Below, piece by piece: positions 2,844-53,569 of a stretch of 61,807 nucleotides of DNA. Origin of the DNA: Candidatus Omnitrophota bacterium (GTDB taxonomy: Bacteria > Omnitrophota > Gorgyraeia > Gorgyraeales > Gorgyraeaceae); the NCBI GenBank assembly GCA_018819285.1, contig JAHJQM010000013.1, positions 1-61,807 on the forward strand, written 5' to 3'. Below the pieces are notes generated by a model, which was not told the DNA's origin, made no database searches, and worked only from the letters and a program-made list of their open reading frames with translations. The position numbers were made by a program, and so were the translations under genes. Each line of letters begins with the position of its first letter. Within the stretch, counting starts at the first letter, position 1.

Positions 2844-2857
2844 AAATTGCTCCTTTT

Positions 2858-4378: not shown

Positions 4379-7300
4379 GTTATATCTTTATGATATTCCT
4401 GCAGGGATTTTACGCTGCTTTTATTTTCAAGAAATGCCTTAATGCCTTCACCTGCCGCAAGGCTGGCTGCTATTGTAGTAAGATACGGTATTTTATATTT
4501 TATAGCGGCCTTGCGTATATAGGAATCATCGTATGCAGCGCTTTTTCCTATAGGCGTATTTATAATAAGGCTTATCTCTTTATTGTGTATTGCATCTATA
4601 ATATTGGGCCGGCCTTCCTGCATCTTATTTACCCCTTCCACATCAATGCCATTTTTTTCCAAATATTTCCTGGTGCCGCTTGTCGCAATTATCTTAAAGC
4701 CTAATTCTTTAAACTGTTTTACAGCTTCGACTATATTTTTCTTTTTGTCCTTTTCGCTGACTGTTACAAGGATTGTGCCTTTAGTCGGAAGTTTCTGGCC
4801 TGCTGCTTCCTGCGCCTTGTAATATGCAAGGCCAAATGAATCAGCCATGCCTAAAACTTCTCCAGTAGAGCGCATCTCAGGCCCTAAAACAGGGTCTGCC
4901 TCGTGAAACATATTAAAAGGAAATACAGATTCCTTTACTCCTAAGTGGCTATATTTTTTTTGTTTCAGATTCATATCTTTTATTTTTTTGCCAAGCATTA
5001 TTTCAGTGGCTATCCTTGCCATTGAGACGCTTGTCACCTTAGAAACAAGCGGCACAGTCCTGGACGCCCTGGGATTTGCCTCTAAAACATACACTTTATC
5101 ATTCGCAATCGCATATTGTATGTTCATGAGGCCAATTACCTTTAATTCAATGGCAATCTTTTTTGTATATTCTTGAATAGTCTCTATATGTTTTTTAGGA
5201 ATCGACCTTGGCGGCAAAACGCAGGCAGAATCTCCTGAATGTATACCTGCTTCTTCTATGTGTTCCATAATAGATGGTATAAAAACTTCTTCGCCGTCGC
5301 AAACAGCATCTGCTTCTGTTTCCATCGCATCTTCTAAAAATTTATCTATCAAAATAGGCCTGTCAGGCGAAATTTCAACAGCTGCGTTTAGATATGCCAT
5401 CAGCATCTCTTCGTCATAAACGCATTCCATTGCCCTGCCGCCTAAAACATATGAAGGCCTGACCATAAGAGGATACCCAATTTTTTTAGCAATATTCAGA
5501 GCTTCATCAAATGTCTTTGCCATGCCACTTTCTGTCTGAAGTATATCTAGTTTTTTCATCACCTTGGCAAATCTTTCGCGGTCTTCTGCCAGATCAATAC
5601 TCTCTGTAGATGTTCCGAGAATTTTCACCCCTGCATCTTCCAGGGCCTTCGCAATATTAAGGGGTGTCTGGCCGCCGAATTGTACTATAGCGCCAATGGG
5701 CTTTTCTTTATTATAGATACTTAAAACATCTTCCACTGTAAGAGGTTCAAAATATAATTTGTCAGATGTGTCATAGTCAGTTGAAACAGTTTCTGGATTG
5801 CAGTTTACCATTATGCTCTCGTAACCCATTGCTTTCAACGCATACGAAGCGTGGCAGCAGCAATAATCAAATTCTATGCCCTGGCCAATCCTATTCGGCC
5901 CGCCGCCAAGAATCATAATCTTTTTTCTGTCGCTTACCTTTACTGAATCAGGTGCATTGTATGTTGAAAAATAATACGCTGCGTCTGCGCCGCTCACAGG
6001 AACCGCTTCCCATGCTTCAACTTTTCCAAGCTTGATGCGCCTATCTCTAATTTCATCTTCTTTTAGGTCGAGTATCTGGCCAAGATATTTATCAGAAAAA
6101 CCGTTTTCCTTTGCTTTAATCAAAAGTTTATCCGGAAGCTTCTTGCCTTTATATGTCAAAATCTCTTCTTCCAGCTCCACAAGCTCTTTCATCTGTTTTA
6201 TGAAATATCGGTGGATTTTTGTCTTTTCATACAGCTCTTCCACGCTCATCCCCTTACGAAGAGCCTCATATATAATAAACTGCCTCTCTGACGTAGGGTA
6301 CGCTAATAAATTCTTCAATTCATCAAGAGACAATTTATTAAAATTTTTAGCAAAACCTAAACCGCTTCTACCAGTCTCAAGGCTCCTGATTGATTTTTGA
6401 AATGCCTCTTTATAGGTTTTGCCAATGCTCATAGCTTCTCCGACTGATTTCATTTGGGTGCCAAGCTGGTCTTTTACATTTTTAAATTTTTCAAAAGCCC
6501 AGCGCGCAAACTTTATTACAACATATTCTCCAGAAGGCGTATATTTATCCAGAGTCCCGTCGCGCCAATAGGGAATATCTTTTAAATCATCCCCTCCTGC
6601 CAATTTGGATGACACATACGCAATCGGAAAACCTGTTGCCTTTGACGCAAGAGCAGACGAACGCGATGTCCTGGGATTAATTTCTATGACCACAACCCTG
6701 TCATCTTCCGGGTTATGCGCAAACTGGATATTTGTCCCGCCTATAACGCCTATCGCGTCCACTATTCTATATGAATATTCTTGCAATTTCTTCTGAAGTT
6801 CTGGTTTTACAGTAAGCATAGGAGCTGCGCAGAAAGAGTCTCCTGTGTGAATGCCCATAGGATCTATGTTTTCAATAAAACAGACTGTGATTTTATTGGC
6901 TTTGGAATCCCTGACTACCTCTAGCTCTAATTCCTCCCAGCCTATAACAGATTCTTCGATTAAGATCTGGCCTATAAGACTGGCGGAAATCCCTCTCGAG
7001 GCTACTACTTCAAGCTCAGCGTCATTATAAACAGCTCCTCCGCCTGTTCCGCCCATAGTGTAAGCAGGCCTTACAATAACAGGATAGCCGAGTTTATGCG
7101 CAATGTTAAGCGCCTCTTTAATATCATAAGCAGGGGCGCTTTCAGGCATTGGAATTTTTAACTTATTCATTGTTTCTTTAAAAATAATTCTATCCTCGCC
7201 CCTTTCAATAGCATCTGCCTGAACGCCTATTATCCTCACTCCATATTTTTTCAATATGCCTTTTTTTGAAAGCTCGCTTGATAGGTTCAATCCTGTCTGG

Positions 7301-38164: not shown

Positions 38165-38971
38165 TTAGTATTCTACTGCAAAACTAATGCCAAATTCCTT
38201 TGAATTATTTTTAGGTTCGAGCCAAGTTGTGCCTCCTGGATCTGTGGTATATTTTGAATCTTTGATGTTCCAGTATCTGAAAAATGGCTCTATTATAAAA
38301 TCCATTGTCTCGCCTTTCTTTTTAAACATGACAGAACCTCTATAGCCATAGCCTTTATCTTGATCATTTTCAATATCATAATATCCAGGTATAGAGCCCA
38401 GGTGGCTTTCGACATTCCCGTCCCAGAACTTATCATATTCCAATCTTAATTTCACATTCCATCCATTTTCAAATGTAGTAGTTACGTCTACGCCTATGGG
38501 GCTATATAAATAACTGATATTTCTATCGTAACCACGGGCGCCTGTTGTAGAGCTTCTCCCCCCCATATTATCATTTAAATGTCTAAAACCTATCCCAACA
38601 TAAGGAGTAATTGCTAATGTTTCTGATACATAAAAATCATAACCTGCCAGGCCCCTCACTTCCCACATATTATCATCTATATTGTTAAGGGTGCCGGAGG
38701 ACCCTGAGCTATAATCTACGCTTCCAAGGCTAGCCCGAGCTTCAATGCCCAGCATATAATTATAGTTACGATACCCCATTGCGCATGTTATTCCATACAT
38801 AAAGCCTTTTTCTTTCATTACCCCAGGTTCTTTATAAGTAATATAGGATGTTTCAAGGCCTATCTCCACCCCTAAATCCTTGCCAAAGACTTGTGGAGCT
38901 TCCAGGTCTGCAAAACCATTGCCTGTTAAAAGCAATATCCAGAATATTGTAATAAATGCAATTCTTTTCAT
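38165..38971 (-). CDS. Outer-membrane beta-barrel protein
   Basis: A 268-residue protein with a signal peptide (MKRIAFITIFWILLLTGNGFA) and repeated amphipathic strands of alternating polar/aromatic residues (YGITCAMGYRNYNYMLGIEARASLG, TPYVGIGFRHLND, WNVKLRLEYDKFW, MDFIIEPFFRYW). It ends in SFAVEY, an aromatic C-terminal strand typical of barrels inserted by Bam. About 8-10 strands. It implies a two-membrane cell. Function unknown. Confidence 0.8.
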   Translation of the reverse strand: MKRIAFITIFWILLLTGNGFADLEAPQVFGKDLGVEIGLETSYITYKEPGVMKEKGFMYGITCAMGYRNYNYMLGIEARASLGSVDYSSGSSGTLNNIDDNMWEVRGLAGYDFYVSETLAITPYVGIGFRHLNDNMGGRSSTTGARGYDRNISYLYSPIGVDVTTTFENGWNVKLRLEYDKFWDGNVESHLGSIPGYYDIENDQDKGYGYRGSVMFKKKGETMDFIIEPFFRYWNIKDSKYTTDPGGTTWLEPKNNSKEFGISFAVEY

Positions 38972-39101: not shown

Positions 39102-42100
39102 TTAGATGGCAGAACGCAGGACTTGCTGACCATCACCTATAGTCTCAGTAAAACGTTTCTCAGGAACAGAAATTACGTCGCCTTTCTTTACAAAACATAT
39201 GACGCCTTCTCCGTATTCTAACTCTAACCCTGCATCTTTGAATGCATTAGGTCTTTTTACATAACACATATATGCAGCGTCTAATATAAGTCTTTCTGTA
39301 AATGCAGCTAAGGTCAAAGCATAGCCTATAGATATCATCATAGTAGTGTTTTTATCTTTTGCTGTTTCAAAAAATTCACGATCTGTATTGCCTAAATCTA
39401 ATCCTATAGAAGATGGGTGGTTAGATATTACTTTTATTCTATCAAAAGCCAGATATTGGCCTAAAAATTCTTTTTCTTTAATTTTAGGTTCTTCTAATAA
39501 TAGTTTTAGGTCTACTATGTCGTAGTTGTCGTCTAAAGGTGCTGGATTAACTGCGAGAACTACTTTATACCCCAATTTTAAAACCTCTCTGGCTAATACA
39601 AGCATATATACAACCTCTCCGGCATTATTGAGATTAAATAATACAGTCTTGTCCCACCTTTCTGGCTCTGGCGTTTTTAATAAACGATCAACAATATCTT
39701 TTGTTCCATCCATTTTTATATGACCAACATCATTTATCAAATCCAATAGTTTGCCTGTCTTCATCCCGTCTGATATGGGGCTTAAAATAAGATTAAAATT
39801 TTGCTCTATTGGATTTTTTTCGTTTCCGTCATTTTTGTCAAATATACTAATATTAGATAAAGTAGCTACTTTTATTGCCAATTCCAAGCGTTTGGCAGAA
39901 TCAGGCGTCTTATCCAATGTTTCAATTAAATCCCGCGTGAAAAATAATGCCTCTTCGTCTGCTTTTTTCTTCTCTATCTGAAATGGCGATCTTGCATACA
40001 CCCATATAATTTGCCATATCAATACTTGAACTTCGCGCAATGTGAGATTATCAACCATTGAGCTGTCCATTATCATAGTGATGGTATCTAATATTTTACT
40101 CTTTAATTTATCATCAATAACCCTGTCCTCGTTAAATTCTACAAGCAGATTTTGCGCTTTATCAATACTTAATGCTACATGTTGAAGCAATATATCAATC
40201 AAATACCCGTGTTGTTTTCTGATTTCAGCAAAAGTCAGATGATTCTGTTTTTCTTTTCCTGCTAGGATACTGTATCGTGACGATTTTGCATCTTTGCGTT
40301 TCACTCTCACTCCTATTATACCTTTCTCTCCTTTTTCTAACTCAGGATTAATAATAAAACCTGTCGACTCGCTTCCTTCAGGGACAGCTGCGTAAGTATA
40401 CACCTCCTCGTCTAACAATGCTTCTACCCCAGCAATATTAAGGCCTGGATGGAATATGCAATCTGATGCATTCAGCCTTGCTAATTGAACGCCTTCCGAC
40501 ACCTCTGAATCAATAAGACAGGTATATGACCCTATTTTTGCGTTTTTCCTGATTTTTGTAGCTCCATCTAATATTACATTTGATCCAATAACTACGCCGG
40601 AATCTATTTCAACACCTTTATCAATATAAATAGTTGAAGGATCTCCTGTTATCTTAACCCCTTTAGCTTCTAAGCTTTTTCTACGAGATTTATGTATAGA
40701 AAGAGGCTCTAATTCCAATTTTATAATTTCTTCTGGTTGTAAAATAGGCGTCATTGGCATACGACGAAAACGTCTTTGTTTTCCTTGGTCATCAATATCT
40801 ACTGTCCTTCTTGTAACTATTTCTCCGTCCTTAATTTCTGCTGAAATAATTTTAGAATCTGTGATAACGCACTTTTCCCCAATTTCAGCCCCGCTTCTAA
40901 TTATCACATCTCCATCTTCAGCTCTTATATGGCTTTCTGCTCCTATTTTTACCTTTCCTAAATAGATAGGGCCTTTTGAAGCATCTAATATGATATTGTC
41001 TCCATCAAAACATTCCATGAAATCATCCGGCTTCCTAATCTCTTCAACATAGAGATGAATATTTCCTGAATTTTGGATTGTTATTTGCCTACCGCTTGCT
41101 TTTAAAGCGGAAATAAATTCTGGATGATTTATTAAATGTATGGTTTCAATATCAATATCTTCCTTTTCTTCTATAATTTTTTCTTTTTCAGGCGGATTAA
41201 CTAATAATAAAGCTGAATGTTTAGGAACTGTTGTAAAATCTAATACCTTTTCAGGTTCTTTAGATGTTAGGATATGCACAAAAGGCTTAGACCATTTTCC
41301 CTGCCACAAGCTCTCCGCATTTCCCTGGCCTTTAGCTATCACGCATACAGTGTTCTTATTGCTATACTCTTTTAAAAAATCGCTGCCTGGTTCAATATCT
41401 GAAACTGATGTGCCAAATATCTTTGATCCTGATGATATCACTTTAAGCCTTGAGGGGTTATATCTTTTGAAATAGCCCATCTCACGCATTCTAGCAACTA
41501 AGCCGCTTGTATCTTTCTTAGTCATATCATTAATCACATTGACATCTCGGCTGGCAATGACAACATTAAAACCAAGCCCTAATAAATACTCCGCTAACAG
41601 CATATCGAACACCACTTCTCCAGCGTTATCAGTCAATATAATTATCTCTGGACGTTCGTTATCATTGATCTTTTGAGAACTGTTATCTGGGTTTTCTTTC
41701 CATCCTTTTTCTTTCTTTTTTATCTCAAATTCTAAATACGCAGTCGCTACTATCTCAAAAAATTCATTGATATGATTTTTTTGAAAATCTTTTACTATCA
41801 TTTCCCCTATTTTATCAATAAGCCATTTAGATTCATCAAAACCTTGTTCCTGGGCTTCCTTTTGAAAACGCGGATCTCCTAAATCCATAGCATTTACTGC
41901 AGCGCAGATTAAAGAAAGCCTGGACAATGAATTATGCATCGATAATAATACAAGCAAATGCCTCGAAATTTCTGCCTTGAGAAAATTATTTTCATATCTA
42001 TCCAAAACTTCTTTAACTATCGGGATAGTTTTCTTCCCTTTTAAGTAAGCTTTAAAAAGCTCCATGGTATTCAGTCGGATGCCTTCAGCATATAAGCCAA

Positions 42101-45100
42101 TCAGAGAGCCCTCTAGCGTTTCTCCTGGGCCTGTTTCAGGAATATCCCAGTGTAAAATATGAGCAAAGCTATTATAAAATTTAGGGAATATTTTAAGCGC
42201 TGCCTCTGTTGCTCTGTCTTTTTCTTTCTTATAAAAATCAGCCTCTCCAAATATTTCCTGTCTTAATCTTTCAGCTACATAATATATAACAAATGTAGGC
42301 TTGCTGGCGTAAGTTGGTTCATAAACTATTGCAAATATCTCTGTATAAAAATGAATCATATCGTTATAAAATAAAACATCCTTATCTGGAGATGTTTTAT
42401 ATTGCAAGGCCATTAATTGATTAATTGTTATATGCATTGCGTTTTCAAAATTTCGAGCCAAGATGTCCCTGTCCTTACATGTTTTAACAAGAGGTATTTC
42501 CTGACGCAAAGTTTGAAAGGCCATGTCTAACTCAGCAAGTATTGTTTTAACTGCCTCTGGGTTGGAGCGTAAAGCGCTAAAGGTTTCTATAAAATTTGCC
42601 TCATTTAAATCTTTTACGTCAGCAGGAAGCTCCTCAGGATTAGAGAATGAGTCTATAATACGCTTACGCACTTTCCATAATTCTTTAAGATTTTTTTCGG
42701 ACAAAAATTCATCAACAAATTGACCGCCATGCTCTTCTCTGAATGCTTCAGGCATGACTTTTCTCTGGGCTTCAGTCAGGCTTCTTGCCATTTTTATATA
42801 GCTTTCTATAAATAAATCTACTAGGGCCTGTTCTTTTAATCCAAGGTTTAATAGATATTTGTCTTTTAAATAATAACCCCGTACATTGCGCGGCAAAAAT
42901 GTCCAATGGCCGCTTCTCATGATATCAAGTATGCCTGACTGCGTATAAGGAAAAAAGCGCGTGCCCCATATCTCCCTACCAATTGGGTGTTCGTTGGTAA
43001 ACCGTTCTAAATTCAGCAAATGATAACCTTTTTTCCGCTTAATAGTTAATTTTGTTACACTGCTAGTTCTAGAAAGGTCTTCCAATATACGCTTCAAAAG
43101 GCCTTCTGGAATCTCAGCTTTAAGTTCCTCTGACATTTGCTTTCTTATCTCGTCAAAAGTAACAAATATACCTTCTATAAATGTGTCTTTTAAAAAATGT
43201 AAAAATCTTTCTTGTATTTCAGCTGATATTGGCAGCGCATAACTATTTATGTCTAGTTCATTCAAAGCAGGCTCTTTGTAATAAGAGCCTAAAATAGTTG
43301 TGAATTTTGCGCGCTCTTTGTCTCTGCCATCTGCCCATTTGGCTTCTATTAATGTGTCTCCTACGCCTTCATCGTAAACATTAACTATATTTGTAGGATT
43401 GCCAGGGTCTTTCTGCTGCGCCCACTTCGTCAGTTCATCTACATTGTCAATATTTGCCTCTATTCTGTCTGCATTAGCCAAAGTATCTTGATTAATCTTT
43501 ACGGCCCCTAAAATAACTTTTACATTTACGCTTGCCTCGGATTGGATTGTTGTGCTTATCCTCTTAGATATATCATCTGCTAATATTTCAAGATTAGAAA
43601 ACGCGGGAAGTCCTTTCGATTTCTCGTCTTCAAGTATCTTATAGAGCTGCTCTGCTTCAGCATATATAACCCTATCTCCTCTTGAATGATCTGGCTCATC
43701 TTGGGCATATTCATTTATTATTTTAAAACCATTTCCATTTATCCATCTTTGTCTTAAAATATCATCTATTGTTTTACCTGTTTTTTCTGCCTCTCCTATT
43801 AATCTGTCTATCCTTTCTTTCATTTCCCCATAAGGCTCATATACAAGTTCTATCTTCATAAGAATAACTGAGCTATCTTGTAATTTAGTGACTATATAAA
43901 AATTATCTGGCGGGCCTCTTACTAACACTGTAGTACCTATAAATACTGTGGACATCTGCTGGAGCGTGTGCAAAAGCCACTCTCTCTTCACAACAGGATA
44001 ATTTTCTTCGATTTGATTAAAATATAAATTAAGGCCTTTTTCATTGTAACTTTTAGCTATAGCTTTGCGATCATCAGTAGATAGTTTATTAGCTGAAGGT
44101 TGATTTATTTCTTTATCAAAATTATCATGCTCTATCAAGAGGTCTTCTGTTGCGCCATGCAATCCAAGCTCATCTTTAGCTATGGCTTTTATATATTCTC
44201 CGTGTCTAAGAGCTTTTCCGAAATCAGAATGAATAGTTTCTTTTGAGACATTTTTTAATTTTACTATACCAAAATTTATACGCGGGCTTTGCATTATTAT
44301 CGGCTTTTTGGTGTTATCTTGTATTATAGTAATATCGAGTCTATTTTGTTTTAAAGTATCGTTTAGCATATTCAGCACCTCGCTACAGGCCTCATTTAAA
44401 TCATGTGAATGCTTTTTAGTTCTATCAAACACCAAGAAGAAGCCATCTCTTTCTTTATACACTCCTTCAAGAGAACGTATATTTTTGTTCAACACATCAT
44501 ACGCTTCTGTAAAATTTTTGTCATTTACGCCATTTATTTTAACAAAGCCGTAACGATCAGATATAAACTCCGAAATTGTATACTGAAGCTCTAATCTTAT
44601 ATTATTAACTTGTGTTGGGGTTAGGCTAGAGGGAAGCACTATTATTGATTCGTCTCCGCCTGACCTGACAATGCCGCCTCCATATTTACTTAAGACCATA
44701 TCAGATATATCGATTGCTGAAAAAATAAGCTTGGTAACAATCTCCATTGTAAATGCTTTATTTAAAACAGATGTTTTAAACATATCTCCATAAGCTATAT
44801 AACACTCCAGGTCTTTTTCTATAAACTCCAGCACCGCTTCCACATTCCGGCCTGGTAAAATACTGGAAAAACCTAATCTGTTTTCTCTATACTGTTTGAT
44901 ATTTTCTTGAGCTGATTCAGTTAATCTAATAAGCTTTTCAAATCTTTCTTCAATAATCTTTTTGTCTTTAAGATACGCGATAAGTCCTTCTAAATTTACA
45001 TCAACTGCTTTGCATAATTCCACAATCCTCTTTGCATCTATCTGACTGAATTCCCATTCTATGTCTTTCCCATGTTTACCAGTAAACTCATGCCTTAATT

Positions 45101-48100
45101 CATGCTCTAAACCAACCTGTAAAAGAATCTTCAAATATTGCCTTTGATCAGGGTTATTGTTATAGAGTTCCAGCAATGCTTGATTTATTCCTATGAAGCC
45201 GTTCTGTAAACAGTCTTCGAAGAGTCTGGGGGATTTTGATAAAGAGGTGATAATTAGAGGCTTGCCATCCTTTGTTTTTTCAAAACCTACAGCTGAAAGC
45301 GCCTTTGCAAGTAGCGCTAAAAACGCTCCATCAGCCTTAGAAGGCGCCCCATCAAATTCATCTATGGCATTTTTTATATCTTTAGACACTAGGATCTCTT
45401 GGCCATTTATTTGCATAGCTATAAAACTATCTTGCCCTGATTCTTTATTGCGCAATTTTAATATTAAATCTCTGGTTACAAGACCAATATCTGGCATTAT
45501 CATATCTTTAGAATCATGATGTTCGCCATTAAAAAGCCCCTCATTATGAGCCCAAGTGGAGTGGACGTTTTTTACTTTTCCTTCTAAATTAGCAGCCATG
45601 CGTCCAGTAATAACCAATTTTCCTTTTACCTCTAAAATACACCCGAGCACATCTAACGCGCTTGGATACATAGAACGCGTATGCGGATATACTCTGACAA
45701 AATGACCTTCTTTAAGGGCCATTGGACTGTCAGATTCCTCGTTATTACCTATAGCAATTACTGCGCTTTCTGGCAAATTGGCCTCATGTAAAATTTCCTG
45801 CACTTGCTGTCCTTTATCAGATACCCTCTCATCAACTCTGAATTTCTTGCTGGTACGTAACATATGAAAGCGGCTTGGGAAGAGGTCTATAACCTGGTCT
45901 ATATATTCTTTAGCGGCTCCTCCGGAAATAATATGAATGTTTAGTTCACTATCCGCAAATAAAAGCAGGTCCATGGCTACCAGGCATCTTTCTATGAAAT
46001 CATCGACTGGGATGATGTTAGTATCTGTCGGTGTAAGAGTTCCTCCAAAATCTATTGCAATGAGTTTGGTATTAAGCGCTGCCTGTTGTATTTGCGCGGT
46101 TATTTTTAATTCTTCGCTACCAGCTATAGCATCTTGAATAATTTGCTCGAATTCTTTATTAATAATTCTATTCTCTTTAAGAAATTCCATAAAATCTATT
46201 ATATTGATTCTTTCAGTATTGCATAACTCCGTTATCCTTTTGGCATCTATTTTCTCAAGTCCAAATTCATCAGTCTCACCCATCTCGTGCCGCAATTCAT
46301 GCTCCAGCCCTACCTGCAACAGGATCTGTAAATACTTCTTTTTTAAAATATCTCCTTTGTGATCATTATAAAAATCCAAAAATGTCTTGTTTATCCCAAC
46401 AAAACCATTCATAAGACAATCTTCGAACATGCGAGGAGAACTAGCCAAGGAAGAAATAATAAGAGGGGCGTCTGATCTATGCGCATTAAACCCTGTTGAC
46501 GACAAGGCCTTTGAAAGAACAGCCAGAAATTCTCCGTCACTCAACGTATCCATAATATCCCTGGACACCAGCATTTTCTGACCATCTATATCTATAACTG
46601 AGAATACATCTCCACCTATATCTATTGCCGCGCCTTTTACTGCTTCTTTTCCTCGTTTGTGCAGTAAATCTATTAATGATGCATCCACATGCCTTCCGCT
46701 AGATAGTGTCATTTTTTCTTCGTGATAATAGCGGCCCTCATATGCGGTCTTGACATTGGCCCATGAAGCATGATGGGGGGATATTTTTTTAAAGCTTGCG
46801 CCAGAAAGAGGCGTAACTACAGGCAATCTCCCTTTGATAAAATTTGGCTCTTGGCTATAGTAATCCACGCTGCCGCTTATATATATTTCCCTGTCTGAAT
46901 CTTTCCAACCCATCTTTTCCCAAAAATCCTCAGACCCAGGGTTTACAACGCCATATATATGACTGTACCCCAGGCCGGATAAAAGTTTTAATAATGCATC
47001 ATATAATTTTGGGCCGCACTGGCCTTTACCTTTCATCCATAATGGCTCTATGCCAAGCCATTCCAAGAAAACACTATCTTTGTCATATGAAATACCATCT
47101 GCCAATTTTAGCGGATAGACTTTTAATGCTGCAACCTGTTTTCCATTATTATCTCTTATTACCAAGTCCAGCAAATGGCCTTCTGGATTATCAATACCAT
47201 ACTCGCCTGAATCTATCGATAATCCATTAGCTACCATAGACCTTGCTCTCTCATCGTCAATATTACCTAGAGCGTTTTCAAGCGCCTCAGCAAGAGGCAG
47301 TAAATCTTCTATCTTTAGCTTATTATCCCCAAGGGTAAATAACTCTCCTTGTTTCACAAGGCCTCTCGCAACTTCGAGTTTTCCTATAAGCTCTGTCAGA
47401 TACTTGTCAGTATCGCCCAGCACCTGCCTTTGGAATGCCCTTATCGCATAATGAGCCCTGAGCAATGGATCTTTGGATTTTACCCACTTGACCCTACCTT
47501 TAGCGAGATAGCGTTCCAACGCAGCTAAGTTACGAGGATGAGCGTCAAAATATGCGTGCATTATTTCATGGAGGAGGGCGACTGGGTTATCTATCAAATG
47601 CCTGGATACTGCTATGATATTTCTGGTTCCTATGCCAAGAATACTTTTTTTGTTATCTTCCAGAATAAGGATCTGGCCGTTCTTTTGAAATTTATCAAGG
47701 TACCAATCTATAACTGTGCGTATTATCCTGTCATTAGTCATTGCCCGCAGTTCCTGCAGCGCCTTATTTATCAGTTGAGGAGGCGCGCGCTGTGCCTGTA
47801 TCCTTATCCTTTCCTGCATTACTTGTGGCCTATCCATATCTATTACAGCGGCAATAAGCTGCGCTCTAGATTCATCATAGGTAGCATCTCTTACAAAGAA
47901 CTTGCCCATCGCGCCTAAACCTTGGGTTTGCTGCTCTGCAGCTAAATCACTAATCCCTTTATTTTTATATTCTATGAGCTCGACAAGTGTTCTGAATTGA
48001 GTAGCCTTTGGATGTATAAAAGCTATTTTATCTCCAACAGAGTTTGTTCTTGAGGTTTTATCTATTATAAGGGCGGATGGTATTATCTGATTAATGGACG

Positions 48101-51100
48101 CCAGTGTTTTTTCTATTTCTCTTGTTCCAAGCGCAATATAATAAACAGCTGCAGAGTTTTCTCGCTTTTCTAAAAAGCTTACTAACTTTTGAGATCCTGG
48201 ATGGCCTTCAATAGGTTGGATTATCTCAATTCCATAAGCTGTCTTAATAACAAGCACGCCTTGTTCTGTTTCTTCCTTTACATCTGTTCCAAAACGTTTT
48301 GCAATATCATAAATGCCGTCATTGACTGCTATTGTTATATAGTCAATCTCTCCGATATTTTCTGAAGCTGAGCTTACAGTCTTAAAATATTTTCTAAAAG
48401 GAAGTAGCCTTGTTTCAGCAAAAGCCTTTAGTATCTGAGCGGCTTCTTTCCTTTCAGCGTCATTTTCAGAGGTTATAAATGAGCCTATAGTTAAATCCTC
48501 TAAAGAAACTTTTCTAGCTGTAAGATATTCTTCCGGAGGCTTGGTTGTTTTTATCATCCAGTCCATTAGCTCAGTGTCAATTTCTCCTTTTTCAGTAACT
48601 GGGAATATTGGCAGATTCCAGAAAGGAAGGCCTGTTATATCAATCTTGGCGTCAAATAACCTATATACAAGCCTAGGATCATCCTCTTGAAGCGCAACAG
48701 CAAACCAGGTTTTAACCTGGGCTGTTAAATAAGCGGCCTTTTGTTCTTTCTTCTTATTTTTATTTTCAGCCCAACCGCCGGGCAACTCAACAGCATTCTT
48801 TTCACACCAGCTTTCAATCATAGCCTCGATTTCTTTTATCCCTGTTACATACGGTTTATTTCTCCTGTACATACTCGCAACAAGCGAGCGGCTTCTATTG
48901 CCTATATCTCTCCTTACATATTCATTACTCTCCCGCGCATATTCATAGAGGCTTTTTGCTTGATTGGCTAATATAAGCCATCTATCCACTGTCAAATCCA
49001 AGATTCTTTGAACGTACGCCCAGCGGATAATCTTTTGGTTAAATATAAAATTTGGTCTCTGAACATTTCCAAGCGTAAGCGTTTTGCCGTCTTTAAGCTG
49101 AAGAACAACATTGTTCTCCTTATCTATGTATACCGATCTTTGTGATTGAGGTTGTTGAGCTGCGTTTGAGGCAGCGTCCCATAGCGATAATTGCACAGGT
49201 TGTTGTTCACCAGCTAATTTTATTTCACCTTTATCTATAATATTCACTATAAACGCGCCATCTATGCCAGTTTTTATGTCCTTTTGGAAATCAATACGAA
49301 TTCCTTGTTCTTCAGCTATGGTTTTAAATGTTTTTTCAAAATCACTAAGCTTCTCTTTGTTAGTCACATCATAAACAATAAATATCCTGCCTCCTGCTTT
49401 AACCATGCGTAACATCTCTCCAATACATTGCTTCACTCCTTCTTCTCCGCCTAACCAGTTAAATAATTCCGTAACACTTAACTTGGTAATGCTATCATCC
49501 TCTATCTTGCCTCTCATGTTTCTGGCATCGCCTAAAAGAATATTTACATTTTCTGGCAACGAATGTTCAACCACTTCTCTTCTGCTAACATTTTGAAGAA
49601 TCGTAGCAACATTTGTTTGGCCTGCTGCTTTATCTAATAGTCCATTGCGTTCCTCTGTGGTCATATTTGAGGTATTTCTTAATAGATGCTCTGCAAGCAA
49701 TAAATTACCTCTCGATATATCAAGATAAATAGCTTGTTTTACATTATAAGAAGTAGCTGCTGCTAAAGTATAAGTACCTGGTCCGCCAGCTAAGTCTAAA
49801 TATATATCTTCATTATTTAACTCTAAAGCGCCCAACACGCTACTAGCTGGATAGGTTCTAAAATAACGGTACTGTTCTTGAGGGCTTGCTAACCCTGCTA
49901 TTTCAGTTTCGAGCAATTGCCAATTAAATTTAGCTCCTGATTCGGCTGAGCTTGGGGCTGTCCCTGTCCCATGTTTAATCTTTGACGCGCCTAAGTCTGT
50001 CGATAAGGGCGCCTCTTCTTCTGAAGGTACTCTCTGCGCATAAACAATAAAGGATGGATCAGTAATAATACCCCCATTGCTAGTAAAACCAATTTGCTCC
50101 AGACTCTTGGTCTCTGAAAGCATAATATTGCCTATAATAAATCCGTTAGGCATTAATACCCTGTGTATCTCTTTTAATAGTTCAATGGTTTTCTTATCTC
50201 CTAGAACATCTGTCCCTATCCCTGCTGCATAGACAATAGCAAATCTTCCATTATCAAAGGGCATAGAACATGCATCAGCGCGATGTAATGTAATACGGCG
50301 ACGTTCTTCTGGAGAAAGTTTCAGCCATTCTTCAAAGATAAGACTAAAATTATCTCTATCAATTTCAACAATATGGATAGTTTTAATTCCTGGTTCTCGA
50401 TGCAATAATTCTTTTGCCTCAACTAAAGTTTGCCCTGGAGCCAATACAGCAATTTCTGCATCTTTTACTAAATCTGATAACGAATACCCCATGTCTTTAA
50501 AAAGACCTAGGGCGGTATTTAGTTCATCCAAGGGTTCGGCAGTAGCATTAATAGTATATTTATCATCAATAACAGGCGAAGCAAGCGCCTCCTCAAAACT
50601 AGTTACTCTATTCTGTTCTCCGTCAAAAAATATCTCTAACCTAATGTCGCGGGCAATCAATGAATTAATTTCATCTCCAAACAGCAACTCAGGCTGTTTC
50701 GTCTCAACTGGTTTGATATGTATCGTTTGCCTTGCAGTTACAATTGATTCAAATTCTGGTTTATTTAACTTTTCTATTGCGTCTTCTTTTGCCACCCTAA
50801 TATATTGGTTGTTATACCTGACAGATGTATTCCCCTCCTTATCTTCTTTGATCGTGATATCATCTACAAGATGTTTCCTGAACTCAGCTGTAAACATGGA
50901 TTCTATCTTATCTATGGGTAGTTTCTTAAGCTTTATGGCTATGGCTACTAGCATGATGATAAATCTATCTGGTAAAAATTCAATGCTACCCAATTCCTTC
51001 TCAAAGTCTTTTAAGAATTCTTTATTCACAAACCCCATAGGAGCTCTTAGTTTCTCATTAAGCTCGCTCATTAGCTCTTTAAGGGGCTTCCTCTTTCCTT

Positions 51101-52799
51101 CCAATAGGTTCCTGTAGTTCTCCTCATCTATAGCTGTCTTTGAATAAGGCGATATTACAATGTATGAGTAGTTATTGTCTTTTAAGAGTTTTGTAAGGCC
51201 TTGGGTATGGAAACCTCCTGTTATTAGAGCTGTTAATTTAGGTTTACGAGTTTCTATTTCACTTGTGGCGTTATTAAACATTGCCAAGTCTCTTTTATGC
51301 GCAAGTTCATAGAAGTTTTCCAATATAGGCAGGTTTTTATCTATTAGATCTGGGTTAAAGTCTATAAAAGAATCTATATTATATTTTGCCAGGTTAGGCT
51401 GCAAGAAGTCTTTAAAGAATATTACTTTGAAATTATCTTTATCTTTAAGATAATAATCTAAGTTTTCATTTGAGATTTTGAGGTTAAAGAAGTTTTCAAG
51501 GAAGTTTACGTTTCTCAGGGCTTTTGTGAGGAGTTTCTGGTCAGGGTTATCCGACATCAGGTCTTTTATCTCATAAGCAAGCTCTTCTATTTCACTGAAG
51601 AGCTTGCTAGAATCTAAAGAGTTTAATTTCCTGAGGTAGGATATGTAGCCAAATAGATCAGGGTATTTATCTATTTCTTCTTTTAGGTGGCGCCTTGATA
51701 ATTCATCCAGGTAGCTATAGAATGAAAATGGAGAGATTTTCTTGTCTTTATATAAAACTGCCTTGGTTGATAGGCTCTCTATCTCGGATTTGTTATCTTT
51801 ATCTTTTAGGAGAGATTGAAGGCTTTCTAGAAGATCCTGGGATTGTTGGGTAATCTTTTTTTGGTCTATTATCTTTTCAGCTTCCAAAGAGTCCCTGAAT
51901 ATAACAATATTCTGATAATTACTGATATCAAGACCAGGTCTTGAGCACAGTAAATAATCTAGGTAGGTATTAGCGTCTATCCTGGATTCTTCGTATTCTA
52001 TCTCTTTGGAATCTAAGTTCAAGAGGGTTTTTGAATATATCTTTGGCTTTAATTTATTCAAAGCCTCTTTTACCTGGTTAGTAAAAGTCAATGCATCTTT
52101 GGAGAACTTCATGATTTTATTAAATTCTACGATATGTTGGAAATACGTATCTTTGTCTTCTATGCCCCATATTGGAAGGTTCGGGTATTTTGTTATAGAT
52201 ATATATTCTTCTCCTGTGAGCTCACCTGAATTGACAAAGAGTTTTGCGACTTTTTCCCTTACTTCTTTATCAGGAAAGCTTGATACAGAGCTTGTATCTA
52301 CTACGCCAGTTGCCCCTTCAGAGCAGACTAAGTTAAGATTATAATCTTTAATTAAAATCTCTAAGATGCCTGCCATGTTAAAAGACGCTTCTGGATTTGT
52401 GTGTAAATCCTGAATATGGATTATTGTTCCCTTGGAATCAGGGGACGAGTAAGAATCGATTACTTTTCCAAGAGTATCTGGGATATATATATTAGCTATA
52501 TCATTAATATAAGAGGCTTTTAAGCTATCGCTTGAGTCTTTGTGATATATAGAATCTTTGGCATTAATATTCTTTTTATGGGATATAGTATCTTTTATTG
52601 TTTCTAGGCTTTGTTCATTCTGTGAACTTATGGTATTCTGATCGACTTTTTTATTCTTAAAGAGACTTCTGGAGGCATATTGTTTTTGTTGAGATGTAGA
52701 GCTAAAGTCAGTAGCCCAGGCTATATCATATGTAAGAAAAGCTATGACAAGAACTGCTGATATTATCTTAATCCATGGTTTATCCTGCCAGTCTAACAT
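39102..52799 (-). CDS. Giant multidomain protein, 4,565 aa
   Basis: One uninterrupted 13.7-kb frame, ribosome-binding site GAAAGAGG. A signal anchor is visible (about 13-30). Domains by eye, approximate residues: 115-560 TraB/ChaN-like fold (IHIQDLHTNPEAS, VCSEGATG, ALITGGFHTQGL); 775-900 and 1000-1150 two class I methyltransferase-like domains (second has YLDLAGGPGTYTLA); about 1740 a zincin site (LLHEIMHAYFDAH); 1820-1975 GNAT-like acetyltransferase; 2010-2215 and 2403-2610 two copies of a module with VGLEHELRHE; 2247-2395 HAD phosphatase-like (IAIDFGGTLTPTD) between them; 2650-2820 GGDEF-like (RSGGDES); 3300-3840 DUF89/ARMT1-like (LTDNAGEVVFD, VIAKGQGNAESL); 3936-4130 left-handed beta-helix hexapeptides; about 4380-4540 a second, degenerate DUF89-like part. 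Giant genes are known in Omnitrophota; this combination I do not recognise. Function unknown. Confidence 0.85.
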   Translation of the reverse strand: MLDWQDKPWIKIISAVLVIAFLTYDIAWATDFSSTSQQKQYASRSLFKNKKVDQNTISSQNEQSLETIKDTISHKKNINAKDSIYHKDSSDSLKASYINDIANIYIPDTLGKVIDSYSSPDSKGTIIHIQDLHTNPEASFNMAGILEILIKDYNLNLVCSEGATGVVDTSSVSSFPDKEVREKVAKLFVNSGELTGEEYISITKYPNLPIWGIEDKDTYFQHIVEFNKIMKFSKDALTFTNQVKEALNKLKPKIYSKTLLNLDSKEIEYEESRIDANTYLDYLLCSRPGLDISNYQNIVIFRDSLEAEKIIDQKKITQQSQDLLESLQSLLKDKDNKSEIESLSTKAVLYKDKKISPFSFYSYLDELSRRHLKEEIDKYPDLFGYISYLRKLNSLDSSKLFSEIEELAYEIKDLMSDNPDQKLLTKALRNVNFLENFFNLKISNENLDYYLKDKDNFKVIFFKDFLQPNLAKYNIDSFIDFNPDLIDKNLPILENFYELAHKRDLAMFNNATSEIETRKPKLTALITGGFHTQGLTKLLKDNNYSYIVISPYSKTAIDEENYRNLLEGKRKPLKELMSELNEKLRAPMGFVNKEFLKDFEKELGSIEFLPDRFIIMLVAIAIKLKKLPIDKIESMFTAEFRKHLVDDITIKEDKEGNTSVRYNNQYIRVAKEDAIEKLNKPEFESIVTARQTIHIKPVETKQPELLFGDEINSLIARDIRLEIFFDGEQNRVTSFEEALASPVIDDKYTINATAEPLDELNTALGLFKDMGYSLSDLVKDAEIAVLAPGQTLVEAKELLHREPGIKTIHIVEIDRDNFSLIFEEWLKLSPEERRRITLHRADACSMPFDNGRFAIVYAAGIGTDVLGDKKTIELLKEIHRVLMPNGFIIGNIMLSETKSLEQIGFTSNGGIITDPSFIVYAQRVPSEEEAPLSTDLGASKIKHGTGTAPSSAESGAKFNWQLLETEIAGLASPQEQYRYFRTYPASSVLGALELNNEDIYLDLAGGPGTYTLAAATSYNVKQAIYLDISRGNLLLAEHLLRNTSNMTTEERNGLLDKAAGQTNVATILQNVSRREVVEHSLPENVNILLGDARNMRGKIEDDSITKLSVTELFNWLGGEEGVKQCIGEMLRMVKAGGRIFIVYDVTNKEKLSDFEKTFKTIAEEQGIRIDFQKDIKTGIDGAFIVNIIDKGEIKLAGEQQPVQLSLWDAASNAAQQPQSQRSVYIDKENNVVLQLKDGKTLTLGNVQRPNFIFNQKIIRWAYVQRILDLTVDRWLILANQAKSLYEYARESNEYVRRDIGNRSRSLVASMYRRNKPYVTGIKEIEAMIESWCEKNAVELPGGWAENKNKKKEQKAAYLTAQVKTWFAVALQEDDPRLVYRLFDAKIDITGLPFWNLPIFPVTEKGEIDTELMDWMIKTTKPPEEYLTARKVSLEDLTIGSFITSENDAERKEAAQILKAFAETRLLPFRKYFKTVSSASENIGEIDYITIAVNDGIYDIAKRFGTDVKEETEQGVLVIKTAYGIEIIQPIEGHPGSQKLVSFLEKRENSAAVYYIALGTREIEKTLASINQIIPSALIIDKTSRTNSVGDKIAFIHPKATQFRTLVELIEYKNKGISDLAAEQQTQGLGAMGKFFVRDATYDESRAQLIAAVIDMDRPQVMQERIRIQAQRAPPQLINKALQELRAMTNDRIIRTVIDWYLDKFQKNGQILILEDNKKSILGIGTRNIIAVSRHLIDNPVALLHEIMHAYFDAHPRNLAALERYLAKGRVKWVKSKDPLLRAHYAIRAFQRQVLGDTDKYLTELIGKLEVARGLVKQGELFTLGDNKLKIEDLLPLAEALENALGNIDDERARSMVANGLSIDSGEYGIDNPEGHLLDLVIRDNNGKQVAALKVYPLKLADGISYDKDSVFLEWLGIEPLWMKGKGQCGPKLYDALLKLLSGLGYSHIYGVVNPGSEDFWEKMGWKDSDREIYISGSVDYYSQEPNFIKGRLPVVTPLSGASFKKISPHHASWANVKTAYEGRYYHEEKMTLSSGRHVDASLIDLLHKRGKEAVKGAAIDIGGDVFSVIDIDGQKMLVSRDIMDTLSDGEFLAVLSKALSSTGFNAHRSDAPLIISSLASSPRMFEDCLMNGFVGINKTFLDFYNDHKGDILKKKYLQILLQVGLEHELRHEMGETDEFGLEKIDAKRITELCNTERINIIDFMEFLKENRIINKEFEQIIQDAIAGSEELKITAQIQQAALNTKLIAIDFGGTLTPTDTNIIPVDDFIERCLVAMDLLLFADSELNIHIISGGAAKEYIDQVIDLFPSRFHMLRTSKKFRVDERVSDKGQQVQEILHEANLPESAVIAIGNNEESDSPMALKEGHFVRVYPHTRSMYPSALDVLGCILEVKGKLVITGRMAANLEGKVKNVHSTWAHNEGLFNGEHHDSKDMIMPDIGLVTRDLILKLRNKESGQDSFIAMQINGQEILVSKDIKNAIDEFDGAPSKADGAFLALLAKALSAVGFEKTKDGKPLIITSLSKSPRLFEDCLQNGFIGINQALLELYNNNPDQRQYLKILLQVGLEHELRHEFTGKHGKDIEWEFSQIDAKRIVELCKAVDVNLEGLIAYLKDKKIIEERFEKLIRLTESAQENIKQYRENRLGFSSILPGRNVEAVLEFIEKDLECYIAYGDMFKTSVLNKAFTMEIVTKLIFSAIDISDMVLSKYGGGIVRSGGDESIIVLPSSLTPTQVNNIRLELQYTISEFISDRYGFVKINGVNDKNFTEAYDVLNKNIRSLEGVYKERDGFFLVFDRTKKHSHDLNEACSEVLNMLNDTLKQNRLDITIIQDNTKKPIIMQSPRINFGIVKLKNVSKETIHSDFGKALRHGEYIKAIAKDELGLHGATEDLLIEHDNFDKEINQPSANKLSTDDRKAIAKSYNEKGLNLYFNQIEENYPVVKREWLLHTLQQMSTVFIGTTVLVRGPPDNFYIVTKLQDSSVILMKIELVYEPYGEMKERIDRLIGEAEKTGKTIDDILRQRWINGNGFKIINEYAQDEPDHSRGDRVIYAEAEQLYKILEDEKSKGLPAFSNLEILADDISKRISTTIQSEASVNVKVILGAVKINQDTLANADRIEANIDNVDELTKWAQQKDPGNPTNIVNVYDEGVGDTLIEAKWADGRDKERAKFTTILGSYYKEPALNELDINSYALPISAEIQERFLHFLKDTFIEGIFVTFDEIRKQMSEELKAEIPEGLLKRILEDLSRTSSVTKLTIKRKKGYHLLNLERFTNEHPIGREIWGTRFFPYTQSGILDIMRSGHWTFLPRNVRGYYLKDKYLLNLGLKEQALVDLFIESYIKMARSLTEAQRKVMPEAFREEHGGQFVDEFLSEKNLKELWKVRKRIIDSFSNPEELPADVKDLNEANFIETFSALRSNPEAVKTILAELDMAFQTLRQEIPLVKTCKDRDILARNFENAMHITINQLMALQYKTSPDKDVLFYNDMIHFYTEIFAIVYEPTYASKPTFVIYYVAERLRQEIFGEADFYKKEKDRATEAALKIFPKFYNSFAHILHWDIPETGPGETLEGSLIGLYAEGIRLNTMELFKAYLKGKKTIPIVKEVLDRYENNFLKAEISRHLLVLLSMHNSLSRLSLICAAVNAMDLGDPRFQKEAQEQGFDESKWLIDKIGEMIVKDFQKNHINEFFEIVATAYLEFEIKKKEKGWKENPDNSSQKINDNERPEIIILTDNAGEVVFDMLLAEYLLGLGFNVVIASRDVNVINDMTKKDTSGLVARMREMGYFKRYNPSRLKVISSGSKIFGTSVSDIEPGSDFLKEYSNKNTVCVIAKGQGNAESLWQGKWSKPFVHILTSKEPEKVLDFTTVPKHSALLLVNPPEKEKIIEEKEDIDIETIHLINHPEFISALKASGRQITIQNSGNIHLYVEEIRKPDDFMECFDGDNIILDASKGPIYLGKVKIGAESHIRAEDGDVIIRSGAEIGEKCVITDSKIISAEIKDGEIVTRRTVDIDDQGKQRRFRRMPMTPILQPEEIIKLELEPLSIHKSRRKSLEAKGVKITGDPSTIYIDKGVEIDSGVVIGSNVILDGATKIRKNAKIGSYTCLIDSEVSEGVQLARLNASDCIFHPGLNIAGVEALLDEEVYTYAAVPEGSESTGFIINPELEKGEKGIIGVRVKRKDAKSSRYSILAGKEKQNHLTFAEIRKQHGYLIDILLQHVALSIDKAQNLLVEFNEDRVIDDKLKSKILDTITMIMDSSMVDNLTLREVQVLIWQIIWVYARSPFQIEKKKADEEALFFTRDLIETLDKTPDSAKRLELAIKVATLSNISIFDKNDGNEKNPIEQNFNLILSPISDGMKTGKLLDLINDVGHIKMDGTKDIVDRLLKTPEPERWDKTVLFNLNNAGEVVYMLVLAREVLKLGYKVVLAVNPAPLDDNYDIVDLKLLLEEPKIKEKEFLGQYLAFDRIKVISNHPSSIGLDLGNTDREFFETAKDKNTTMMISIGYALTLAAFTERLILDAAYMCYVKRPNAFKDAGLELEYGEGVICFVKKGDVISVPEKRFTETIGDGQQVLRSAI
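51921..51951. repeat. Family B palindromic element embedded in frame in the giant gene (copy 2)
   Basis: 51928-51951 repeats the centre and right arm of the 43-bp palindrome at 33623-33665 exactly; the left arm is degenerate. In the giant frame it encodes LCSRPGLDIS, inside the TraB/ChaN-like region. In-frame insertion with part of an arm altered is the pattern of protein-tolerated palindromic elements, as described for Rickettsia. Confidence 0.7.
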
Positions 52800-52823
52800 C
52801 TAAACCTCTTTCAAGCTTTCTGT

Positions 52824-52858
52824 AAGTTGACACTCTAACAATGTAAGAGTGTCAACTT
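52824..52858. repeat. Palindrome, family A copy 2, upstream of the giant gene
   Basis: Arms of 17 bp (52824-52840, 52842-52858) with one mismatch around one base. The sequence equals the palindrome at 8008-8046 except for two positions near the centre. It ends 25 bp before the giant start, just before its ribosome-binding site. Confidence 0.85.
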
Positions 52859-52870
52859 GATAACAGATCC

Positions 52871-52939
52871 AGGGCATGTCTCTCTGGTGTATAGGCCTGC
52901 CATGGGAGAGAGGTCCTATTCATTAAAAGGCAATGCCCT
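52871..52939 (-). promoter_or_regulatory. Structured segment of the giant-gene 5' leader
   Basis: AGGGCAT (52871-52877) pairs with ATGCCCT (52933-52939), enclosing CTCTCT (52880-52885)/AGAGAG (52907-52912) and ATAGG (52891-52895)/CCTAT (52915-52919). The inner pairs cross, so they are alternatives or a pseudoknot. With the terminator upstream and family A palindrome downstream this makes a leader of about 300 nt. Confidence 0.4.
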
Positions 52940-52961
52940 AGATATATTGTTAGAACATAAT

Positions 52962-52998
52962 AAAAAAGCCAGGTATTATTATTCATAATTACCTGGCT
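52962..52998 (-). terminator. Intrinsic terminator inside the giant-gene leader
   Basis: A perfect 9-bp stem (AGCCAGGTA 52967-52975 with TACCTGGCT 52990-52998), then TTTTT on the minus strand. It is downstream of the promoter at 53109-53137 and upstream of the giant start, the same layout as at carB and hflK. Confidence 0.75.
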
Positions 52999-53108
52999 TA
53001 TATTGTTTAATATTAAGGTTCCCATGGCACAAATACCTCTATTTGAGTGACTTTTTACTGGTTTATCTTACTTCAAAGACTTACAATTCTTTTATAAACT
53101 CTAGAATA

Positions 53109-53491: not shown

Positions 53492-53569
53492 TGGCGTCCC
53501 CACGGGGATTTGAACCCCGGTCGTCAGATCGAAAATCTGATGTCCTAGACCAGGCTAGACGATGGGGAC
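53492..53569 (-). tRNA. tRNA-Glu (UUC)
   Basis: A 78-nt cloverleaf: acceptor GTCCCCA/TGGGGAC, anticodon stem TCAGA/TCTGA with loop TTTTCGA (anticodon TTC), T-arm CGGGGTTCAAATCCCCG, discriminator G, CCA encoded. It begins five bases after the gyrA stop, implying excision from the gyrase transcript. Confidence 0.97.

What the first reader, a model, noticed from the sequence alone, without database searches (positions are those of the whole stretch)
39102..52799. Giant 4,565-residue mosaic of enzyme-like domains in one frame
A single gene joins a TraB/ChaN-like domain, two methyltransferase-like domains, zincin sites, a GNAT-like domain, an HAD domain, a GGDEF-like domain, two DUF89-like regions and a beta-helix behind one signal anchor. 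Several catalytic signatures remain recognisable, so it is not simply a structural repeat protein. It might be a secreted multi-toxin, a surface predation or attachment factor, or a metabolite-repair megaenzyme.
Basis: partly seen in the sequence, partly recalled or inferred. Interest (0 to 1): 0.85.

Follow-up and report, generated by a model that had tools for sequence, protein, structure and literature searches.

The report
Exported giant mosaic of metabolic enzymes
This gene of an uncultured Omnitrophota bacterium encodes one of a large, previously unrecognised family of exported giant proteins that share a front domain and carry shuffled, often still active-looking copies of enzymes that normally stay inside the cell; it matters because the giant genes of this phylum have had no common anatomy or explained function.

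Summary
The 4,565-codon frame is real (minus strand, 52799 to 39102; Shine-Dalgarno-like site, no stops). Profile searches confirm two methyltransferase-like domains, two DUF89/ARMT1 domains and a GlmU-like hexapeptide helix. The zincin, HAD and GGDEF-like signatures rest on motifs conserved in homologous modules elsewhere; the GNAT-like call rests on eye alone.

The gene belongs to a family. After a signal peptide comes a ~490-residue head with invariant IQDxH, EG, RD and GG[FY]H motifs (weakly ChaN/Tiki-like). A model of 28 heads matches 141 of 285 Omnitrophota genomes, in open frames from about 450 to over 12,000 residues. Tails are shuffled: nearly every block of this tail has a 45-65% identical relative in another frame, in a different context.

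Elsewhere the cargo includes SecA, RelA/SpoT, PRPP synthetase, phosphomannose isomerase, aminotransferase, PFK and TIM domains, beside the ordinary housekeeping copies. Exported TIMs from three bacterial families form one clade (98/99 support) with the active site intact.

Best reading: exported multi-enzyme mosaics acting outside their own cytoplasm, probably on partner-cell material. Export and modularity are well supported; the site of action is inferred. Two structure predictions failed (pLDDT 50 and 44).

The parts
39102..52799 (-). Giant gene, 4,565 aa (P0001)
   Evidence: Single ATG-to-stop frame; SD-like AGAGG upstream
52710..52799 (-). Signal peptide / leader MLDWQ...YDIAWA (res 1-30)
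   Evidence: Hydrophobic core with basic N-side; the same ~34-aa leader (65-79% id) heads otherwise unrelated proteins of this genome
51060..52520 (-). Head domain (res 94-580), ChaN/Tiki-like motifs IQDLH (129), GGFH (528)
   Evidence: 28-member alignment with invariant D131, H133, E161, G162, R503, H531; PF04187 2.6e-4 in relatives; 141 of 285 Omnitrophota genomes
51030..51050 (-). Junction motif LRAPMGF (res 584-590) between head and cargo
   Evidence: LR[VPAL]P-type motif at the same place in related heads and right after the signal peptide in headless exported cargo proteins
50007..50663 (-). Methyltransferase-like 1 (res 713-931), SAM motif I degenerate here
   Evidence: PF13649 1.2e-6; 51% relative in G013 has the canonical GPGPG
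49305..49847 (-). Methyltransferase-like 2 (res ~985-1165)
   Evidence: PF08241 1.1e-5, PF13649 3.2e-5
47967..49151 (-). Block res 1217-1611 incl. VOC/methylmalonyl-CoA-epimerase-like domain (1485-1609), metal His lost
   Evidence: TIGR03081 5.3e-7; 54% identical block in a 9,075-aa frame of another family, His kept there
47556..47570 (-). HEIMH (res 1744), isolated zincin-type motif
   Evidence: sequence; HExxH observed 3 vs 0.13 expected
46803..47405 (-). Block res 1799-1999, GNAT-like by eye
   Evidence: No profile hit; 46% relative in G009
46230..46730 (-). Zincin-like repeat 1 (res 2024-2190, HELRH at 2167)
   Evidence: Duplicate of repeat 2 (50% id); HExxH conserved in G084 and G038 giants
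45618..46097 (-). HAD-like block (res 2235-2394), second catalytic Asp replaced (DFGGT)
   Evidence: Weak PF00702 0.23; 65% relative in G011, 56% in G038, DFGGT also in G011
44988..45557 (-). Zincin-like repeat 2 (res 2415-2604, HELRH at 2566)
   Evidence: as repeat 1
43233..44945 (-). GGDEF-like block (res 2619-3189; GGDE at 2714)
   Evidence: No profile hit; 45% relative inside a 5,973-aa giant with the same head, GGDE kept, dN/dS 0.28
41256..42467 (-). DUF89/ARMT1-like phosphatase 1 (res 3445-3848), TDNAGE intact
   Evidence: PF01937 3.6e-27; DN[AC]GE in both relatives
40410..41027 (-). Left-handed hexapeptide helix, GlmU-type (res ~3925-4130)
   Evidence: PF00132 4.4e-5; TIGR01173 1e-9
39345..40115 (-). 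DUF89-like 2 (res 4229-4485), NNAGE in place of DNAGE
   Evidence: PF01937 3e-8; NNAGE also in G016 and G017 relatives

Best explanation
The protein is one member of an Omnitrophota-wide family of exported mosaic proteins. A Sec-type signal peptide takes it across the inner membrane (inferred from sequence). A ChaN/Tiki-like head, probably a metal-dependent hydrolase or ligand-binding domain, is the constant part (homology weakly shown, activity inferred). A junction motif joins it to a tail of cargo domains derived from ordinary cytosolic enzymes, which recombine between giants (shown). Some cargo domains keep their active sites, others have lost them (shown by motif). Most likely the proteins work outside the producing cytoplasm, in the periplasm, on the surface or in contact with a partner or prey cell, where the surviving enzymes process phosphorylated sugars and other cytosolic-type substrates released from that cell (inferred).
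For: Head in 141 of 285 phylum genomes, in frames from ~450 aa to over 12,000 aa (giants translated hold no masked bases). Six other large proteins of this genome carry leader, head or both with unrelated tails. Tail blocks recur elsewhere in other orders; a headless 1,070-aa exported protein of this genome is built of two modules lying 2.6 kaa apart inside a 10,987-aa giant of a sister species, 41% and 69% identical. The housekeeping domains checked also have their normal copies: 255-aa TIM, ~930-aa SecA, ~350-aa PFK, plus a divergent copy in a large frame in a subset of genomes. Exported TIMs from three families form one clade (98/99) with N, K, C, H, E conserved in all four; exported PMI, PGM and aminotransferase score 1e-35 to 1e-21. 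dN/dS 0.13-0.36 for head and modules. Cysteine 0.5% here and 0.03-0.7% in other giants against 1.3% in cytosolic proteins, as expected for exported proteins.
Against: No outer-membrane secretion route, receptor-binding domain, toxin domain or immunity gene was identified. Several cargo types (SecA, PFK, PRPP synthetase, kinase) need ATP, which is normally absent outside a cytoplasm. Some domains here are degenerate (MTase 1, VOC, HAD, DUF89-2). Localisation and activity are unmeasured; the head fold was not confirmed (AF2 pLDDT 49.8). In one giant from another class most of the tail had no Pfam match.
Confidence: 0.45

Rival explanations
1. Multi-effector delivered into host or prey cytosol: the head or an unknown partner moves the tail into another cell, where ATP-, SAM- and nucleotide-dependent cargo acts on that cell's metabolism, in the manner of a MARTX protein.
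For: Cargo needs cytosolic cofactors (SecA, PFK, PRPP synthetase, RelA/SpoT, kinase, methyltransferase); variable cargo behind a constant head; predatory or parasitic lifestyles proposed for the phylum (PMC10066038).
Against: No translocation machinery, autoprocessing domain or known toxin seen; TIM or PMI activity would hardly harm a cell; stand-alone heads are common.
Confidence: 0.2
2. Structural coat or adhesin in which enzyme folds are reused as bulk or binding modules, like surface moonlighting enzymes; catalysis is irrelevant.
For: Some domains lost catalytic residues; adhesin and coat roles were proposed for other Omnitrophota giant ORFs; relaxed constraint (dN/dS 0.25-0.48).
Against: Exported TIM keeps every active-site residue in four genomes of three families while the rest of the protein diverged; HExxH and DN[AC]GE conserved across giants.
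Confidence: 0.2
3. Resident periplasmic or internal-compartment enzymes serving the producer itself, for example salvage of sugar phosphates or envelope polysaccharide building.
For: Coherent sugar-phosphate theme (TIM, PFK, PMI, PGM, DUF89, GlmU-type helix); low cysteine.
Against: Other cargo (SecA, RelA/SpoT, GGDEF, protein kinase) does not fit; repertoire differs strongly between sister species.
Confidence: 0.12
4. Assembly chimera or degenerating read-through of unrelated genes.
For: Several modules carry degenerate motifs; head and tail differ in GC skew.
Against: Clean frame with SD-like site; head and blocks under purifying selection; same head on long frames in many independent genomes.
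Confidence: 0.03

Closest known systems
Giant ORFs (>20 kb) of Omnitrophota (Seymour et al. 2023, PMC10066038)
   Same: Same phylum; single very long exported frames, up to 11-12 kaa among those translated here
   Different: That paper reports few annotated domains and poor conservation and does not mention TraB, methyltransferase or multidomain; a common exported head and housekeeping-enzyme cargo are shown here. Whether the V. archaeovorus 39,678-aa protein carries the head was not tested.
ChaN/Tiki/TraB/erythromycin-esterase-like superfamily (PF04187 and kin)
   Same: GxH-type N-terminal motif (here IQDxH), EG, RD..MA-type and GGxH motifs; PF04187 C-terminal part aligns in 4 of 28 members
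   Different: Long helical insertion; no member over the Pfam cut-off; fold not confirmed
MARTX and other modular multi-effector or polymorphic exported proteins
   Same: Constant N-terminal part with exchangeable catalytic modules in one polypeptide (comparison from general knowledge)
   Different: No RTX repeats, cysteine protease domain, CDI/RHS delivery parts or immunity genes noticed; cargo is housekeeping-enzyme-like
Damage-control phosphatase DUF89/ARMT1 (PF01937)
   Same: Two tail domains match, one with the DN-G-E site intact
   Different: Embedded in an exported giant; second copy NNAGE

Membership tests
Omnitrophota giant ORFs | Omnitrophota genome | tested here: met
   All four named relatives of the head found by the genome-contig scan are Omnitrophota MAGs
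Omnitrophota giant ORFs | Frame longer than 20 kb | tested here: not met
   This gene is 13.7 kb; relatives with the same head reach 33-38 kb
ChaN/Tiki superfamily | Conserved catalytic/ligand motif set | tested here: met
   Invariant D131, H133, E161, R503, H531 in 28 heads
ChaN/Tiki superfamily | Profile match above curated cut-off | tested here: not met
   PF04187 best 21.5 bits vs cut-off 27.7
ChaN/Tiki superfamily | Superfamily fold | tested here: inconclusive
   AF2 with 5 sequences, pLDDT 49.8; no PDB sequence relative
DUF89/ARMT1 phosphatase | Profile and Asp-Asn metal site | tested here: met
   PF01937 3.6e-27 with TDNAGE; second copy degenerate
MARTX / polymorphic toxin | Known toxin domain plus delivery or immunity parts | tested here: inconclusive
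   No toxin, RTX or delivery domain in the Pfam scans; neighbours not scanned for immunity genes; padloc not run
MARTX / polymorphic toxin | Translocation into another cell | not testable with these tools
   needs experiment

The most novel reading that the evidence does not exclude
Omnitrophota run a parallel, exported set of core-metabolism enzymes, strung together and reshuffled in giant proteins behind a dedicated export head, that carries out catalysis outside the producing cell on material of a partner or prey cell.
Probability: 0.25. Interest if true: 0.92.

Novelty: new variant of a known kind. Interest (0 to 1): 0.74.

Why it matters
Giant genes are common in Omnitrophota but have been described as poorly conserved with few annotated domains. 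A shared head (a 28-member alignment usable as a search model), a junction motif and a recognisable class of cargo turn them into one family whose members can be found, named and tested. Exported triosephosphate isomerases with intact active sites, conserved across bacterial families beside the normal cytosolic enzyme, pose a sharp, directly testable question: why would a bacterium with a genome of about 1.6 Mb export glycolytic and other housekeeping enzymes?

Tried and rejected
AlphaFold2 of the head (5 sequences) and of residues 1640-2120 (single sequence) gave pLDDT 49.8 and 43.8; no Foldseek search was made on them. A 35,113-aa head-bearing frame was rejected as inflated by a masked run of N. 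A scan of viral contigs with the head alignment found nothing; plasmids and phages none. A C-terminal tripeptide motif enriched in the own-genome family (7 of 11 vs 9 of 1,058) was partly fitted to the same data and failed on eight fresh head-bearing frames, mostly stand-alone heads (1 of 8): left as unexplained. ATP/ADP translocase search in the own genome was uninformative. PF04187 search of the phylum found only two weak hits. Chimera, simple repeat protein and conserved domain order were considered and rejected.

Full report
Observation. The frame reported at 39102-52799 runs on the minus strand, ATG at 52799 to the stop at 39102, 4,565 codons without a stop. An AGAGG stands about nine bases before the ATG and a promoter-like TTGACA-17-TATACT lies 310 bases upstream. 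The window is contig 9 of a 1.56 Mb, 94% complete genome. The gene lies downstream of an apparent dnaA-dnaN-gyrB-gyrA cluster (identified by eye from the translations) and a tRNA-Glu gene.

Domains in this protein. Pfam and NCBIfam support two methyltransferase-like domains, two DUF89/ARMT1 domains, a GlmU-type hexapeptide helix and a methylmalonyl-CoA-epimerase-like (VOC) domain. Zincin, HAD and GGDEF calls rest on motifs, the GNAT call on eye alone. Three HExxH motifs occur against 0.13 expected by shuffling. In homologous modules from other giants the HExxH of the duplicated module, the DN[AC]GE of the first DUF89 and the GGDE of the GGDEF-like block are conserved. The second DUF89 is NNAGE in all three relatives, the HAD is DFGGT in both, and the VOC histidines and methyltransferase-1 motif I are lost here but present in the relative. 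The tail is thus a mix of apparently intact and degenerate enzymes.

The head. Residues about 94-580 have no Pfam family of their own. Aligning 28 relatives shows invariant I129-Q130-D131-x-H133, E161-G162, R503 and G528-G529-x-H531. Four of 28 members hit PF04187 (ChaN, Tiki superfamily) with a best E of 2.6e-4, below the curated cut-off, in the C-terminal part. The assignment is a lead supported by motifs, not a confirmed membership; structure prediction failed for want of an alignment.

Distribution. In 99 relatives, 59 genomes have the head, and it lies in frames from about 450 aa to 12,701 aa. A model of the 28 heads matches 141 of 285 genomes across the phylum, including families outside this class, often several times per genome. 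The four named relatives found are Omnitrophota MAGs; plasmids, phages and viral contigs gave none. One very long frame was inflated by masked bases; the giants translated (5,352 to 12,700 aa) contain no masked bases.

A family in the same genome. Contig 57 carries leader and head joined to SecA-like sequence. Contig 56 joins the head to aminotransferase, phosphoglucomutase and phosphomannose isomerase. Contig 67 has an exported TIM protein next to a stand-alone head. Contig 66 has leader plus PRPP-synthetase-like cargo without the head, contig 61 leader plus a methyltransferase-like domain, and contig 53 leader plus YD/RHS-like repeats by eye. Leaders, heads and tails are therefore separately exchangeable.

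Shuffling. The G006 contig 4 giant shares the head (72%) and residues 2619-3189 (45%) with this protein and nothing else of length. Residues 3191-4548 lie inside a 10,184-aa frame (46%), and residues 1217-1611 inside a 9,075-aa frame of another family (54%). The two modules of the 1,070-aa contig-66 protein are adjacent in a 2.1-kaa protein (63% and 75%) and far apart in a 10,987-aa giant (41% and 69%).

Housekeeping doubles. Most genomes have the ordinary ~255-aa TIM, ~930-aa SecA and ~350-aa PFK, and in a subset a second, divergent copy sits in a larger frame. The larger TIM frames whose N-terminus is held start with signal peptides. Exported TIMs of G000, G004, G038 and G020 (three families) form one clade, support 98/99, separate from the canonical TIMs, with Asn, Lys, Cys, His and Glu of the active site intact in all four. 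dN/dS is 0.045 for canonical TIM, 0.30 for exported TIM, 0.13 for the head, 0.28 for the GGDEF-like block and 0.25 for the PRPP module: constrained, but less than housekeeping genes.

Export marks. The N-terminus has a basic side before and an acidic side after the hydrophobic core. Cysteine is 0.5% here and 0.03-0.7% in the other giants, against 1.3% in cytosolic and 0.65% in exported proteins of this genome. An LR[VPA]P-type motif follows the head in related giants (LRAPMGF here) and follows the signal peptide directly in headless cargo proteins. Four of five frames found by tail homology alone, with their N-terminus in hand, also have signal peptide plus this motif. In the own genome as a whole the enrichment is modest (7 of 169 exported against 1.6 expected).

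Interpretation. Shown: export-type leader, shared head, recombining cargo, purifying selection, intact active sites in some cargo. Inferred: location beyond the inner membrane and action on material from another cell. The chemistry of the best-conserved cargo centres on phosphorylated sugars and nucleotides, which would be available where a partner cell is being opened; ATP-dependent cargo would make sense only in another cytosol. Predatory or host-dependent lifestyles are proposed for the phylum and giant ORFs in it have been described as poorly understood, with few annotated domains (PMC10066038). Three further paper searches in the held open-access library did not turn up a description of this family or of exported glycolytic enzymes in Omnitrophota; the primary V. 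archaeovorus paper is not held, so novelty is judged against that library only.

Verdict. The anatomy is well supported, the function is open.

Noticed in passing
window 52820-53010, minus strand: In the 5' leader: a terminator-like hairpin (AAGCCAGGTA...TACCTGGCTTTTTT) and, just before the Shine-Dalgarno site, a near-perfect inverted repeat (GTTGACACTCT...AGAGTGTCAAC); possible attenuation or operator.
   Followed up: no
window 53492-53569: tRNA-Glu gene directly upstream of the giant gene, between it and gyrA; tRNA genes are common integration sites.
   Followed up: no
window 51000-53000: GC skew switches sign over the head region (+0.06 to +0.09) against about -0.15 over the rest of the gene, suggesting different histories or composition of head and tail.
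   Followed up: no
window 38165-38971: A 268-aa protein that looks by eye like an outer-membrane beta-barrel lies immediately downstream on the same strand; possible partner.
   Followed up: no
C-termini of P0001 (RSAI) and relatives, e.g. L015 RTGI, L013 RVAI, G006C5 RSSL, L020 RSNL: Cargo-bearing exported proteins often end in a small-small-aliphatic tripeptide, often preceded by Arg; 7 of 11 vs 9 of 1,058 in own genome, not validated on fresh data.
   Followed up: partly
L016:1-2521: An exported YD/RHS-like repeat protein shares its first ~70 residues almost exactly with the head-bearing giant of contig 57 (L012).
   Followed up: no
L014 exported TIM vs L171 (G004): Synonymous divergence of the exported TIM (0.55) is lower than of the canonical TIM (0.96) between the same two species, hinting at recent exchange of cargo modules.
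   Followed up: no
L137/L138 and L145/L146: Lactamase_B, HD_4 and RelA/SpoT domains occur in the same order in giants of two families (about 50% identity over 0.9 and 1.7 kaa).
   Followed up: partly
L220/L221 (G131, another class): An 11.9-kaa giant with the head has an outer-membrane efflux (OEP) domain and otherwise almost no Pfam match in its tail, so cargo differs between classes.
   Followed up: partly
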